From: Eubacteriaceae bacterium
Lineage (GTDB): Bacteria; Bacillota; Clostridia; Eubacteriales; Anaerofustaceae
Assembly (NCBI GenBank): GCA_017551505.1
Contig: JAFZLL010000050.1
Span: forward strand, 1-49,533
DNA: 49,533 bases
Reading direction: 5' to 3'
How positions within the stretch are numbered: position 1 is the first letter of the stretch; the number at the start of each line of letters is the position of its first letter. Below are positions 1 through 49,533 of the stretch, piece by piece. The translations under genes were made by a program, and so were the position numbers. A model generated the notes under the pieces. The model did not search any database. It worked only from the letters and a program-made list of their open reading frames with translations, and was not told where the DNA came from.

Positions 1-84
1 GGGACATCGCACGAGCGTGACATAAATGCCGCAATGAACATCCTTCAGGAAGGACTCAGAGAGTACCTGAGGGATACGGCATAG
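1..84 (+). CDS. tnpB: TnpB RNA-guided nuclease, C-terminal fragment
   Basis: The window opens in mid-gene. Frame 1 reads 27 residues to TAG, starting GTSHERDINAAMNIL and ending REYLRDTA. The HxRDxNAAxNI block is the conserved C-terminal stretch of TnpB, and its Asp is the third acidic residue of the RuvC nuclease site in this family. In IS200/IS605 elements TnpB is guided by an RNA made from the right end of the element and cuts donor sites, which favours retention of the element. About 90% of the protein is outside the window, so activity cannot be judged. The right-hand copy ends KEGLREYLRDTA, one residue different from this copy (Q to K). Confidence 0.88.
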   Translation, partial: GTSHERDINAAMNILQEGLREYLRDTA

Positions 85-242
85 GCATGTGATACAGCAT
101 ACCATCACGATAGGGCAGGAACTGTCCGAATCCGCAACGCCTGTGGAGCCGGCGGCCTCTGTGTACGGCGATACGTCGTCGTATGTAAGCTGCAGCGTTG
201 AAGCAGGAATCCCACACTTCTATAAGTGGCGGGAGTGTTCAA
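1..242 (+). mobile_element. IS200/IS605-family element, 3' part (left copy)
   Basis: This is the 3' part of an IS200/IS605 element. It holds the end of tnpB followed by a 158-base structured right end that finishes with a small hairpin (CACTT/AAGTG, 215-228) and TTCAA at 238-242. Family right ends are hairpins followed by a short cleavage tetranucleotide such as TCAA. The boundary at 242 is supported by the second copy: from the tnpB stop to TTCAA, 161 bases align without gaps to the opposite strand of 49336-49496, with five substitutions, and similarity stops beyond that. The 5' part lies outside the window. Whether a TnpA transposase is present cannot be seen. Confidence 0.88.
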
Positions 243-258
243 AATTCACTGTCGATCA
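85..258 (+). ncRNA. Putative omega (right-end) guide RNA of the left TnpB element
   Basis: In TnpB systems the guide RNA scaffold is transcribed from the end of tnpB through the right end, and the 16-20 bases just outside the element act as guide. Here the scaffold would be 85-242 and the guide about 243-258 (AATTCACTGTCGATCA). The region contains a clear hairpin at 164-183 (TACGGCGA, TACG loop, TCGTCGTA), with one G-U pair where the other copy has G-C. A second hairpin is at 215-228. The 5' end of the RNA is unknown. This is inference from family biology plus visible structure. Confidence 0.5.
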
Positions 259-3938: not shown

Positions 3939-4074
3939 GTCGTTTCAGCATGTTTTGCAGGTGTATCTCCAAATCGATACCGGTAAACAGGCCGGAATAT
4001 GATTTCCCATAAACCGCCCGCCTGACAGCATGACGGCTCAGCGCATCATCTCTGTCAGCCCTACCTGCATATCT

Positions 4075-4581
4075 TCATATCTCATCCTGTCCAGATTCGG
4101 ACACTAATCCCCTGGCCTGCTTGCCTGTCATATGTTCCACAGTCATCTCGAACATGGCAAGGCGTGAGAACTCTTTATCGATCTCGGAAAGCCTCCCCTC
4201 CGGAGTGTCTCCGGGATTATACTTTTCTGCCAGGGTCTCGGCAGAGGATATCATCTCGTCTTTTCCGGTCAGCGCGCGGATACGTCCGAACACTATCACG
4301 CTTTTGTAATATGTGGCATACTCCTCGGGAATAACGTCATCCGCAGAGACCACGCAGAATGAAGCCTTTTCGTCCTTCATGACGCTGTCCATGCGGTGCC
4401 CGCTTCTGGCCCCGTGGAAATACAGTCTGTCATTTTCGTACACGTAGCTCATCGGCACGGCGTAAGGGTAATCATCGTCGCCGTGAAGCGCCAGGACGCC
4501 ATGGCTGGCGTTTTTGAGGATATCGATGCATTCCTCCCGGCTGAGTGCCTGGCCGTACCTCCTCATCTTCCTGAACATCAC
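4075..4581 (-). CDS. NimA-like pyridoxamine 5'-phosphate oxidase-family flavoprotein
   Basis: A 168-residue protein of the FMN-binding split-barrel family closest to NimA-type (nitroimidazole resistance-like) proteins. Visible family segments are RYGQALSREECIDIL near the start, ASHGVLALHGDD, YPYAVPMSYVYE, LYFHGARSGHRMD, and the VIVFGRIRAL strand. These proteins bind FMN or sometimes haem, and many reduce small electrophiles; the physiological substrate is unknown. The ATG overlaps the stop of the upstream deaminase gene by four bases (ATGA), so translation is probably coupled. It is the last gene of the ahcY-mtaD series. A role in SAH metabolism is not implied by its fold. Confidence 0.82.
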   Translation of the reverse strand: MMFRKMRRYGQALSREECIDILKNASHGVLALHGDDDYPYAVPMSYVYENDRLYFHGARSGHRMDSVMKDEKASFCVVSADDVIPEEYATYYKSVIVFGRIRALTGKDEMISSAETLAEKYNPGDTPEGRLSEIDKEFSRLAMFEMTVEHMTGKQARGLVSESGQDEI

Positions 4582-5840
4582 ACTATACCCAGTTCACGCG
4601 CCGTCGCATATGCTTCTTTCCTGACTTTATCGATATCGAGCGTTTTGAACTCACCGAAAGCGTAAAGGACTTTCCCGTTGACGATGTTCAGGATCACATC
4701 TTCCCCCGTTGCCGAATATACCGCATCAGCTGCCGGATCGACGCCCGGGAACATATTGAAGCTGGCGCTGTCCAGGACGATCATATCGGCGTCCATGCCG
4801 GCCTTGATCAGCCCTGCATTGCCGAATCCCAGGGCCCTGTAGCCGTTGAGCGAAGCGCACCTCAGCGATTCCTCGGCGCTCATGGCTTTCGGGTCATTGA
4901 GGCTGCCTTTCGCGAGAAGGCTCATGGCCTTTGTTTCCCTGAACATATCGAGGCTGTTGTTGCTGGATGCCCCGTCCGTTCCTACGGCGATGGCAGCTCC
5001 GGAGCCCATAAGGTCCCTGACCGGCGCGATGCCGTTGCCCAGCTTGAGGTTGCTTAACGGACAGTGGGCGATATTCACGTGCTTTGAACCCAGCAGAGCG
5101 ATATCGCTCCCGGTCAGATGCACGCAGTGGGCAGCTATCGTCGGCAGATCGAAGACTCCGAGCCTGTCGAAATACTCTACCGGAGAACAGCCGTGGCGTT
5201 CAACGCATCCGGCGACCTCGTACGCGCTTTCGGACACATGCACATGTATGCCTGTACCGAGCGAGGCTGCCGTATCCGCGGCGTAGGACACGATATCCTC
5301 ATCGCTCGTATACTCGGCATGGATGCCCATATATACGCGGAGATTGCCGTTTGCGGCGCCGTCATGATCCTTAAACCAGCTTACGTGCGAATCGACCCCT
5401 TCCCTTGAGGAGCTGCCCCGGGTTATGTTTGCCCTGATGCCGGTCTCAAGCACGGCGTCGATAACGCTGTGCATATGATAATACATATCCGCAAAGGCTG
5501 AGGTCCCCGTCCTGATCATCTGGGCGATGGCCAGCATCGTGCCGTCATGGATCATCTGCGGAGTGTACATCTCTTCGATCGGGACCACCTTGTCCAGCCA
5601 GTCGTTGAGATTCTCGTCGCTGGCGACTCCCCTGAGCAGCACCATAGCCGCGTGGGTGTGGGCGTTGACCATCGGAGGCATGCACAGCCCTCCCCTTCCG
5701 TCGATCACATCTGCGCGGAGCCCGTCGGTCAGAGCGCTCTGAGCGCCTGCGTAGACGATCCCTCCGTCATCGAAAGCGACCGCCCCTCTTTCAAAGTATT
5801 CTTCACCCGTATACAGCCGGACATTCTTTAACAGCTTCAT
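4578..5840 (-). CDS. mtaD: 5-methylthioadenosine/S-adenosylhomocysteine deaminase
   Basis: A 420-residue amidohydrolase of the MTA/SAH deaminase family, which deaminates the adenine of S-adenosylhomocysteine, methylthioadenosine or related nucleosides to the inosine form. Metal ligands are visible: NAHTHAAM near residue 60, GIHAEY, HVHVSES near 200, HCVHL, and the catalytic Asp in VGTDGASSNN near 290. Length and order fit the family. The start is one base beyond the ahcY stop, and the next gene overlaps by four bases, so ahcY-mtaD-nimA behave as one translation-coupled unit. The ribosome binding site is poor, which also suggests coupling. With ahcY it points to an SAH recycling route that may pass through S-inosylhomocysteine. 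Confidence 0.9.
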   Translation of the reverse strand: MKLLKNVRLYTGEEYFERGAVAFDDGGIVYAGAQSALTDGLRADVIDGRGGLCMPPMVNAHTHAAMVLLRGVASDENLNDWLDKVVPIEEMYTPQMIHDGTMLAIAQMIRTGTSAFADMYYHMHSVIDAVLETGIRANITRGSSSREGVDSHVSWFKDHDGAANGNLRVYMGIHAEYTSDEDIVSYAADTAASLGTGIHVHVSESAYEVAGCVERHGCSPVEYFDRLGVFDLPTIAAHCVHLTGSDIALLGSKHVNIAHCPLSNLKLGNGIAPVRDLMGSGAAIAVGTDGASSNNSLDMFRETKAMSLLAKGSLNDPKAMSAEESLRCASLNGYRALGFGNAGLIKAGMDADMIVLDSASFNMFPGVDPAADAVYSATGEDVILNIVNGKVLYAFGEFKTLDIDKVRKEAYATARELGIV

Positions 5841-23230: not shown

Positions 23231-23245
23231 ATCAATTGTATGAAA

Positions 23246-23350
23246 CAGCCGCAGACAACAGGTGCTTGAAAAAGCTTAAATATCCTGTCGAGGTGAACAA
23301 GAGTGCTTAACAACGAGCGCTTCGCCTGGCGGTGAAGCGCTTTTCTTTTT
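23246..23350 (+). ncRNA. L10 (ribosomal protein) leader with terminator
   Basis: The L10 leader binds the L10-L12 complex and lets it repress its own synthesis. The core is recognisable: GCAGACAACAGGTGC (23251-23265) and AAGCTTAAATATCCTGTCG (23272-23290). ACAGG pairs with CCTGT, and GCTT with AAGC forms an inner stem, as in Bacillus-type leaders. It is followed by a terminator (AGCGCTTC at 23316-23323 with GAAGCGCT at 23334-23341, then TTTCTTTTT), so control is likely by transcription attenuation before rplJ. Confidence 0.85.
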
Positions 23351-23395
23351 AGCTTATCGCTGCTGTTATCATAAATAATCAAAGGAGGTACAGCA

Positions 23396-47106: not shown

Positions 47107-47600
47107 GTATCTCCTTTTCTTGACTGTTAGTTAGACTTTTCCGAAAATCATATATATCCCGCCTTGGTTTTTCCGAAAGATAGAGTAGTGTGCAGGTGGT
47201 GAAGTCAGTGGTCAATTGTCCCAGTCAAGTGACCAAGCTCGAAATACCACAGTTCATCTTCCGTTTATTCCCCAGATCAGAAATCGCAAACCGGGGAATA
47301 GTATTGGGGAATAAACGACCACGTCGTGGTCAGCTTTTTACCACGAAATAGCAACGAGATTTTTCCGAAACATAGAAAAGTGGCGAAAACAGTACCGTTT
47401 TCAGCCCCTGAACACATGATAATCCCGTGTTTTTCGTTCTTCGTGACCATGAAATGTGCCGTAAACGGCCTCGGCGGGAGAGTGGGAATAATATAGATCG
47501 ATTAACCAGAGCCCGGAAGCCATTTTTCAATGGATTCCGTGCTTTTGTTTATTGTGTGAGGCGGATTCTCAACGCTTATACAACATGAAAAGCCCATTTG
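47107..47600. other. Gene-free stretch with dyads and repeated TTTTTCCGAAA
   Basis: No gene is supported. The stretch has three copies of TTTTCCGAAA (47137-47146, 47169-47178, 47361-47370), the last two extended alike (TTTTTCCGAAA then ATAGA). It has a 13-bp inverted repeat CGTTTATTCCCCA/TGGGGAATAAACG (47262-47274 and 47305-47317) and a 15-base palindrome GACCACGTCGTGGTC (47317-47331) with another ACCACG at 47340. The cluster may be a regulatory or replication-like site, or remnant of a mobile element. Confidence 0.5.
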
Positions 47601-47636
47601 TCGATTAAAACTATAGTCGACTATTGTTTTAATCGA
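47601..47636. promoter_or_regulatory. 36-bp palindrome upstream of the ATPase gene
   Basis: TCGATTAAAAC (47601-47611) and GTTTTAATCGA (47626-47636) are exact inverted arms, and the centre contains TAGTCGACTA. Over the whole 36 bases only one pair is mismatched. It ends 42 bases before the ATPase start, so it is probably its operator or a recombination-type site. Confidence 0.75.
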
Positions 47637-47678
47637 ATCCATATGCTATTCTATGTTTGGGAAGGCGGTGGAGACAGC

Positions 47679-48935
47679 ATGTACATGAGAAGAGATATAG
47701 AGAAAATCTTGTTAAAGGCCGCAGAGTCATTCCAGGTAATCACTTTGTTTGGCAGCAGACAGGTGGGGAAAACGACCACAGCGGACCATCTGTTTGGTGA
47801 TGAATTCGGTTTTGTAACCTTGGATGATTCCGATGAACTGATTTTGGCTCACAATAATCCAAAAGGGTTTTTCGAGTCTCACCCATGGCCTCTCATTATC
47901 GACGAAGTCCAGAAAGAGCCCTGTCTCTTAAGTGAAATCAAAAGAATCGTGGATGAGCAGCGACGTATCTGGATGCGGAACGGAGAACAGAGAAAACTGA
48001 TGTTCGTTCTGACCGGATCGAATCAGTTTGAGCTTCAGGAGGGAATATCTGAGTCGCTTGCCGGGAGGACTGCCGTGATCAATATGGCAGGATTTACACA
48101 AATGGAGAAAAGAGGCATAGAAGGTTCCCTATTTGAAGTTGATTTTGAAAGCTCAATCGCAAAACAACATGCACATCCGGATTTTTATAAAAGCAGTATA
48201 GCTGTATTTGAGGATATATTTCAGGGAGGAATGCCGGATGTGTGCACCGGAGAATCTGAACGGAATACGTACTATAAAGCATATGTTGATACATACATTG
48301 AGAAAGATGTCCGAAAATTTATTTCAGCATCCAGCGAGATGCAGTTCAGACGTTTTATTGAAATACTGGCACTTAGGACTGCCCAGGAACTTGTATACAG
48401 CGATATTTCGAGGGATCTGGGAATCAATGTTGACACATGCAAGAGATGGATCTCGATATTGCAGACATCTGGGATAATCTACCTGCTTCAGCCATATATG
48501 TCAAATATGTCAAAGAGAATAATTAAGTCACCTAAGCTGTATTTTATGGATACAGGCCTGTGTTCATTTCTGTGTAAATGGCCGTCTGCCGAAATGCTGA
48601 GAGATGGAATAATGAACGGAGCGTTCTTTGAGACTTATGTAGTAAGCGAGGTGATAAAGAGCTTTCTGAACAATGGTGTGGATCCGGCTCAGTATTTGTA
48701 TTACTACAGGGACATAGATAAAAAAGAGGTAGATATACTTCTTGTAAAGGAAGGAACACTTTACCCTGTCGAAGTAAAAAAAGGCATTTCCCCCACAAAA
48801 CCGACAAAGAACTTTACCGTGTTGAAAAAATACGAGATGCCGATCGCTCGAGGAATGGTAATAGATAACACCGACGCAGTAAGGGCAATAAACGATAAAG
48901 CTTTCTGTTTCCCTGTTTCCCTGTTAGGAGTGTAA
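47679..48935 (+). CDS. AAA ATPase with DUF4143 C-terminal domain
   Basis: A 418-residue protein of the AAA_14/DUF4143 family. The ATPase has Walker A FGSRQVGKTT (near 25), Walker B WPLIIDEVQKEP and the sensor VLTGSNQFEL. DUF4143 in the C-terminal half ends with a PD-(D/E)XK-like nuclease pattern (EVDILLVKEGTLYPVEVKKG). The start is ATG 47679 with GGTGGAG upstream, near YMRRDIEKIL, the family start. These proteins are widespread in accessory DNA of gut anaerobes, and their role is unproven; a link to mobile elements or defence is suspected. A 36-bp palindrome lies upstream. Confidence 0.85.
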   Translation: MYMRRDIEKILLKAAESFQVITLFGSRQVGKTTTADHLFGDEFGFVTLDDSDELILAHNNPKGFFESHPWPLIIDEVQKEPCLLSEIKRIVDEQRRIWMRNGEQRKLMFVLTGSNQFELQEGISESLAGRTAVINMAGFTQMEKRGIEGSLFEVDFESSIAKQHAHPDFYKSSIAVFEDIFQGGMPDVCTGESERNTYYKAYVDTYIEKDVRKFISASSEMQFRRFIEILALRTAQELVYSDISRDLGINVDTCKRWISILQTSGIIYLLQPYMSNMSKRIIKSPKLYFMDTGLCSFLCKWPSAEMLRDGIMNGAFFETYVVSEVIKSFLNNGVDPAQYLYYYRDIDKKEVDILLVKEGTLYPVEVKKGISPTKPTKNFTVLKKYEMPIARGMVIDNTDAVRAINDKAFCFPVSLLGV

Positions 48936-49067: not shown

Positions 49068-49335
49068 ATGGATAATTGTGAATGGTGCAGACTATCTGAA
49101 GAAGAAAAGCAGTTTCAGGTATACGAAGGCAGATCATGGTCTGTCTTCCTGTCTGATTAACAAGATTATATCGGACGGTGCATATTGGTCTTGAAGCGTC
49201 ATTGCAGTTCATTGTCAGGACTGACGGATGATGAATGGGAGGAGCTTCGCGATCTGGTCTGCAAAGTGGAGGCATGCCTGAAGGCTGCTTTGGGAGCAGC
49301 TCTATGTAACTGGAGCTGTCTGATGAACAGTTTCT
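49068..49335 (+). pseudogene. HIT-family gene, broken by a stop codon and by the IS
   Basis: ATG 49068 (AGGG nearby) starts MDNCEWCRLSEEEKQFQVYE and ends SVFLSD before TAA 49158-49160. Read-through gives a coherent continuation (QDYIGRCILVLKRHCSSLSG, then LTDDEWEELRDLVCKVEACL and LCNWSCLMNSFF), typical of a clostridial HIT subgroup whose next part is the catalytic His triad. The stop is one substitution from AAA (K in the usual ADKQDY). The gene is then cut at 49335 by the IS copy, so the catalytic histidines lie beyond it or are lost. It is a true double-hit pseudogene. Confidence 0.85.
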
Positions 49336-49493
49336 TTGAACACTCCCGCCACTTAGAGAAGTGGGGGATTCCTGCTTCAACGCTGCAGCTTACATACGGC
49401 GACGTATCGCCGTATACAGAGGCCGCCGGCTCCACAGGCGTTGTGGATTCGGACAGTTCCTGCCCTATCGTGATGGTATGCTGTATCACATGC
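49320..49493 (-). ncRNA. Putative omega (right-end) guide RNA of the right TnpB element
   Basis: On the minus strand the scaffold would run from 49493 to 49336 and the guide would be about 49335-49320 (AGAAACTGTTCATCAG), taken from the broken HIT gene. The hairpin at 49395-49414 is TACGGCGA, TACG, TCGCCGTA, perfectly paired, and a second hairpin CCACTT/AAGTGG is at 49349-49364. Inference from family biology. Confidence 0.5.
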
Positions 49494-49533
49494 CTATGCC
49501 GTATCCCTCAGGTACTCTCTGAGTCCTTCTTTA
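49336..49533 (-). mobile_element. IS200/IS605-family element, 3' part (right copy)
   Basis: The same element as at 1-242, in the opposite orientation. Minus strand 49496-49336 matches the left copy at 156 of 161 positions and ends at TTCAA (TTGAA on the plus strand at 49336-49340). It has interrupted a HIT-family gene. Only the last 198 bases lie in the window. Confidence 0.88.
49494..49533 (-). CDS. tnpB: TnpB C-terminal fragment, right copy
   Basis: The last 12 codons plus stop of tnpB, reading KEGLREYLRDTA then TAG. It differs from the left copy by Lys for Gln at the first residue. The rest of the gene lies beyond the window. Confidence 0.8.
   Translation of the reverse strand, partial: KEGLREYLRDTA

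What the first reader, a model, noticed from the sequence alone, without database searches (positions are those of the whole stretch)
1..258. Two inward-facing TnpB element ends with a guide-RNA hairpin in which a base change keeps pairing
Seen: both window ends are 3' ends of one IS200/IS605 element, 156 of 161 bases identical. One of the five differences lies in an 8-bp hairpin (164-183 left, 49395-49414 right) and turns a G-C pair into G-U, so pairing is kept. Known: the right end of TnpB elements encodes the guide RNA scaffold, and flanking bases form the guide. Inference: both copies could still make guide RNAs with different guides (243-258 and 49335-49320). Another difference lies at the foot of the terminal hairpin and loses a pair in the left copy.
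Basis: partly seen in the sequence, partly recalled or inferred. Interest (0 to 1): 0.62.

Follow-up and report, generated by a model that had tools for sequence, protein, structure and literature searches.

The report
Ordinary TnpB element ends with guide-RNA scaffold
Both ends of this contig lie inside copies of one multi-copy bacterial jumping gene whose end encodes the scaffold of a guide RNA for the TnpB DNA-cutting enzyme; the scaffold matches the well-studied Deinococcus one part by part, so this is a new member of a known kind and not a surprise.

Summary
Window 1-242 and 49336-49533 are right (3') ends of one IS200/IS605-type TnpB element (7 differences in 198 aligned bases; 156/161 identical over 82-242). 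The window is one whole contig. The genome has nine such right ends and ten left ends, all near contig ends, so the 'inward-facing pair' is an assembly effect. Each right end stops at ...GTGTTCAA before a different flank; all ten left ends follow TTTATCAA.

Compensatory changes in relatives support these pairings, except stem 3.

Better evidence: stem 1, stem 2 and the pseudoknot are invariant in all nine copies. Guide-RNA capacity of both copies is likely but unshown. No tnpA is visible in the element. New member of a known kind.

The parts
1..84 (+). 3' end of tnpB, left copy (RuvC-III motif ...HERDINAAMNILQEGLREYLRDTA*; stop TAG 82-84); rest lies beyond the contig end
   Evidence: C-terminal parts of other copies hit PF07282 and PDB TnpB chains 8bf8/8h1j
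113..127 (+). omega-RNA stem 1 (113-117/123-127) with loop 118-122 GGAAC, left copy
   Evidence: invariant in nine copies; compensatory changes in relatives
118..122 (+). 5' strand of the pseudoknot, GGAAC; pairs with 237-241
   Evidence: same letters as ISDra2 -106..-102 but for the last; GAA/UUC, GAC/GUC, GGC/GUC pairs in relatives
140..144 (+). stem 2, 5' strand CCTGT; pairs with 203-207
203..207 (+). stem 2, 3' strand GCAGG
207..210 (+). GAAT, right guide sequence G_R of the TnpA DNA-recognition type
   Evidence: G_R/C_R coupling GAAT-TCAA and GAAG-TCAC in relatives; IS608 rule PMC5934647
210..234 (+). stem 4 / right-end subterminal DNA hairpin; pair 214-229 lost in this copy
237..241 (+). 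3' strand of the pseudoknot, GTTCA
239..242 (+). TCAA, right cleavage site C_R and end of element
   Evidence: all nine copies diverge after it
243..258 (+). flank that would serve as guide (16 nt), left copy
   Evidence: differs in every copy; 16-nt guide length from ISDra2
49494..49533 (-). 3' end of tnpB, right copy (last codons; stop 49496-49494)
49336..49465 (-). omega-RNA scaffold, right copy: stem 1 49465-49451, stem 2 49438-49434/49375-49371, stem 3 49418-49391, stem 4 49368-49344, pseudoknot 49460-49456/49341-49337
49320..49335 (-). flank that would serve as guide, right copy

Best explanation
The two window ends are the right ends of two copies of one small tnpB-only IS200/IS605-type (IS1341-like) element present in about ten copies in this genome. 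The right end has two roles. As RNA, the end of the tnpB transcript folds into an ISDra2-type omega-RNA scaffold, and the next ~16 nt of host flank become the guide. TnpB with this RNA would cut the TTTATCAA-type motif plus guide, which is the site re-sealed when the element leaves, so the element is kept or copied back. As single-stranded DNA, stem 4 with GAAT upstream and TCAA downstream is the recognition hairpin for a Y1 transposase acting in trans. Shown: repeat, ends, insertion motif, scaffold homology, compensatory changes. Inferred: expression, processing, cleavage, mobilisation in trans.
For: Nine right ends 95-98% identical ending at ...GTTCAA with nine different flanks. Ten left ends all preceded by TTTATCAA, 0 mismatches. 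TnpB C-terminus with RuvC-II E, RuvC-III D and zinc ribbon, E = 1.5e-25 to ISDra2 TnpB in the PDB. A covariance model built from the nine copies finds full-length matches after the tnpB of Lachnospiraceae and others at E about 1e-10 to 1e-5. Tree-aware null for stems 1, 2 and 4 together: 0 of 1000 simulations reach the observed paired share or double changes; singly: stem 1 7 of 2000, stem 4 0 of 2000 on changed cells. Stem 2 over distant relatives: 42 of 47 distinct loci keep a 5-bp partner, permuted mean 14.5, maximum 23. Pseudoknot 14 of 16 distinct, 2 of 2000 permutations reach it. G_R/C_R coupling GAAG-TCAC 50, GAAT-TCAA 8, GAAA-TCAC 2 of 60. Pairing letters agree with the ISDra2 cryo-EM structure, including G139.A208 and U144.G203 as its G-85.A-31 and U-80.G-36.
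Against: No full-length copy is in the assembly: the middle of tnpB, including RuvC-I, is missing from every copy, so integrity of the nuclease is not shown. No tnpA in the element; the only Y1 gene in the genome belongs to another element. No empty site was recovered in relatives, so TAM plus guide was not seen joined. Rfam has no match here. Stem 2 alone is not significant among the 27 closest sequences.
Confidence: 0.88

Rival explanations
1. The copies are inert relics: they were spread by a transposase now lost, tnpB is broken or silent, and the RNA fold is only left over from recent common descent. (This rivals the claim of present activity, not the identification.)
For: No tnpA in the element and one unrelated Y1 gene in the genome; middle of tnpB unseen; one stem 3 pair and one stem 4 pair are broken in several copies.
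Against: The C-terminal reading frame is open in the copies read, and stem 1, stem 2 and pseudoknot strands are invariant in all nine while other sites vary; relatives keep intact tnpB with GLDY, VE and RD motifs.
Confidence: 0.3
2. The hairpins are kept only as single-stranded DNA structures for a Y1 transposase; the RNA fold is incidental.
For: Stem 4 carries GAAT and TCAA exactly as the IS608 right end does, and G_R/C_R letters co-vary in relatives. Stem 4 alone gives most of the covariation.
Against: Stem 1, stem 2 and the pseudoknot are not part of the known DNA recognition hairpin, and they co-vary over relatives and match the solved ISDra2 RNA.
Confidence: 0.06
3. The two ends are an assembly artefact such as one copy duplicated by circularisation or mis-joining.
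For: The contig ends inside the repeat on both sides.
Against: The copies differ at seven sites and have unrelated flanks.
Confidence: 0.03

Closest known systems
ISDra2 TnpB / omega-RNA (reRNA), Deinococcus radiodurans (PMC8612924, PMC10097598)
   Same: Order and letters of stem 1, pseudoknot GGAA(U/C) x GUUCA, stem 2 with flanking G.A and U.G, stem 3, stem 4, -1A before the guide; TnpB C-terminus homologous
   Different: Insertion motif TTTATCAA instead of TTGAT; stem 1 has a 5-nt loop; no tnpA in the element
IS608 right end (Helicobacter pylori; PMC5934647)
   Same: C_R TCAA and G_R GAAT identical; subterminal hairpin
   Different: C_L here reads TCAA with a GAAT upstream of the left hairpin, IS608 has TTAC/AAAG; IS608 carries tnpA
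tnpB elements of Eubacterium ruminantium, Butyrivibrio, Clostridium vitabionis and other Lachnospiraceae (L059-L075)
   Same: 63-68% identical TnpB C-terminus, same scaffold by covariance model
   Different: Left flank TTTAAC, right end TCAC with GAAG; shorter stem 3

Membership tests
IS200/IS605 family (tnpB-only, IS1341-like) | Subterminal hairpins and insertion 3' of a fixed short motif, without target duplication | tested here: met
   Left and right hairpins; 10/10 left ends after TTTATCAA; right ends followed by unrelated flanks. Absence of target duplication could not be checked directly because no copy has both flanks
IS200/IS605 family (tnpB-only, IS1341-like) | G_R/C_R pairing of the IS608 kind | tested here: met
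   GAAT/TCAA; coupling over 60 loci
IS200/IS605 family, autonomous (IS605-like) | Y1 transposase TnpA in the element | tested here: not met
   None in the left or right parts; the only Y1 gene lies in another element on C20. tnpB-only members are known to lack it (general knowledge)
TnpB RNA-guided nuclease | RuvC D-E-D triad and zinc ribbon | tested here: inconclusive
   E, last D and CxxC pairs present in copies C19R (whole C-terminus) and, for the parts covered, C38L and C38R; first D lies in the part missing from the assembly; present in relatives
Omega-RNA / reRNA of the ISDra2 type | Stem 1, stem 2, stem 4 and a pseudoknot just before the guide | tested here: met
Omega-RNA / reRNA of the ISDra2 type | Transcribed RNA with ~16 nt of flank, bound by TnpB | not testable with these tools
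   needs RNA sequencing
TnpB RNA-guided nuclease | TAM equal to the left-flank insertion motif, cleavage of the empty site | not testable with these tools
   motif known from 10 left ends; cleavage not testable; empty site not found in relatives

The most novel reading that the evidence does not exclude
The element uses an unusually long fixed insertion site, TTTATCAA in 10 of 10 left ends, in which a TnpA-type TCAA (C_L equal to C_R, with GAAT at both ends) is joined to a TTTA part that may be read by TnpB as TAM, so that transposase and nuclease specificities overlap in one 8-nt motif.
Probability: 0.3. Interest if true: 0.35.

Novelty: new member of a known kind. Interest (0 to 1): 0.2.

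Why it matters
It adds a multi-copy TnpB family with a candidate insertion motif (TTTATCAA) and a scaffold that can be placed on the ISDra2 structure, including a pseudoknot and a stem 2 that co-vary across Bacillota. Nine copies with nine different guides in one small genome would be a natural test of how copies with one nuclease and many guides behave. It does not change the understanding of the family.

Tried and rejected
Empty sites: 500-base right flanks of seven copies searched in 13 relatives gave only partial matches of one gene (76% in the same genus) starting over 200 bases past the junction. Joining left and right flanks by reading frame gave no convincing pair. A short ORF cut by the right copy had no relative in 20 genomes and no Pfam hit. 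Near or distant DNA matches in phages and plasmids: none. The first viral scan used a wrong reading frame of L005 and is void; the second found only distant TnpB. Stem 3 could not be tested for covariation: the model skips it in most relatives; within Lachnospiraceae a smaller hairpin stands there, with mostly one-sided changes. A hairpin 131-136/142-147 predicted by energy is not kept in relatives and overlaps stem 2; rejected. An energy-predicted pairing 61-66 with 235-240 overlaps the pseudoknot strand and has no counterpart in relatives by eye; rejected. Energy z-scores are weak (-0.5 and -2.5), so energy alone is no argument.

Full report
What was checked. The window is the whole contig C49 of a 1.56-Mb, 63-contig assembly. 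Its first 242 bases and its last 198 bases (reverse strand) are the right ends of one element. The two copies differ at seven of 198 aligned positions: left-copy positions 46, 48, 134, 163, 179, 214 and 222. The genome holds nine such right ends and ten left ends, all close to contig ends. The contig ends inside a repeat at both sides, so 'two inward-facing ends' has no biological meaning in itself.

The element. All nine right ends stop at ...GGGAGTGTTCAA and then have unrelated flanks. All ten left ends are preceded by TTTATCAA without a mismatch, while the base before it varies. Left ends run through about 230 bases into the start of a tnpB gene; right ends carry its last codons, a stop and 158 more bases. 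The middle of tnpB is not in the assembly. Fragments match HTH_OrfB_IS605, weakly OrfB_IS605 and Cas12f1-like_TNB, and the C-terminal 128 residues match ISDra2 TnpB of the PDB at 1.5e-25. No tnpA lies in the parts of the element that can be read. The only Y1 gene of the genome is in a different IS605 element on contig C20, which has an intact 366-aa tnpB frame.

Relatives. A scan of genome contigs with the TnpB C-terminus gave 80 loci, the nearest (63-68%) in Lachnospiraceae. A covariance model built from the nine own right ends found full-length matches after tnpB in these loci and in a genome of the same order. The left ends of the Lachnospiraceae elements follow TTTAAC.

Structure. In ISDra2 the solved RNA has stem 1, a pseudoknot of -106..-102 with -6..-2, stem 2 of -84..-81 with -35..-32 flanked by G-85.A-31 and U-80.G-36, stems 3a/3b, and stem 4 (PMC10097598). 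Counting back from the guide (-1 = 242), the window shows GTTCA at -6..-2 (237-241) and GGAAC in the loop of stem 1 (118-122); CCTGT 140-144 opposite GCAGG 203-207, flanked by G139 and A208 and ending with U144.G203; then stem 4 at 210-234. In ISDra2 stem 3b is disordered and its deletion raises editing activity, so stem 3 is the arm where changes are least telling.

Tests of pairing. Among the nine own copies there is no covariation at all: four variable stem sites keep pairing, all by transitions, and two break it (178 G to T in four copies, 214 C to A in four copies). Across 27 distinct sequences, 20 of 33 pairs show changes on both sides and 94.8% of cells pair; no shuffle of 500 and no slid register comes near. 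As relatedness inflates such counts, substitutions were re-placed at random on the sequences' own tree: for stems 1, 2 and 4 none of 1000 simulations reached the observed values. Separately, stem 4 is very strong, stem 1 moderate (7 of 2000 on changed cells, 70 of 2000 on pairs with double changes), stem 2 not significant among these close sequences. Over the wider set of TnpB loci, 42 of 47 distinct sequences have a 5-bp stem 2 partner against 14.5 expected by permutation (maximum 23 in 2000). The pseudoknot strands pair in 14 of 16 distinct combinations (mostly GAA/UUC, GAC/GUC, GGC/GUC), reached by 2 of 2000 permutations. The permutations do not correct for relatedness. The exceptions are one genome with GAC/UUC (Geobacillus jurassicus) and a mis-parsed loop in L062/L069. 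Sixty of 83 loci could be parsed automatically in that call.

DNA role of the same end. GAAT before stem 4 and TCAA at the end are the G_R and C_R of IS608 (PMC5934647). In 60 parsed loci the last letters are coupled: GAAG with TCAC (50), GAAT with TCAA (8), GAAA with TCAC (2), never GAAT with TCAC or GAAG with TCAA. By the same rule the GAAT before the left hairpin fits a left cleavage site TCAA, the end of TTTATCAA (inference). Stem 4 is therefore under selection as DNA and probably also as RNA, and its covariation alone cannot prove a guide RNA; stem 1, stem 2 and the pseudoknot speak for it.

Mechanism. By homology (PMC8612924) TnpB bound to this RNA would cut the re-sealed donor site, TTTATCAA followed by the 16-nt flank, and repair from the sister would restore the element. 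For the two window copies these guides are 243-258 and 49335-49320. Both scaffolds have intact stem 1, stem 2 and pseudoknot; the left copy lacks one stem 4 pair (A214.G229), which three other copies lack too. Expression, processing and cleavage were not testable.

Verdict. This is a new member of a well-known kind, with ordinary interest. The one point slightly out of the ordinary is the 8-nt invariant left-flank motif.

Noticed in passing
G000 contig C20, about 4000-5600 (L031): A second, different IS605 element with tnpA and an intact 366-aa tnpB; right end GGTCAC with GAAG.
   Followed up: partly
49069-49335: Short ORF cut by the right copy; it also has an in-frame TAA near 49159. Looks like a HIT-family protein from memory only; no Pfam hit or close relative for the fragment.
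   Followed up: partly
47598-48935: AAA_14/DUF4143 ATPase gene near the right copy; the left flanks on contigs C14 and C53 appear to lie next to similar genes.
   Followed up: no
L038:2040-2240: In a genome of the same class (G091) a 24-base exact match to the window's terminal hairpin stands in an intergenic repeat without tnpB nearby, like an orphan REP- or MITE-like hairpin.
   Followed up: no
L072:1213, L067:1211, L070:1211, L064:1216: The model of the right end also picks up the left-end hairpins of Lachnospiraceae elements, each preceded by TTTAAC.
   Followed up: partly
23231-23355: Ribosomal protein L10 leader (Rfam RF00557), ordinary.
   Followed up: no
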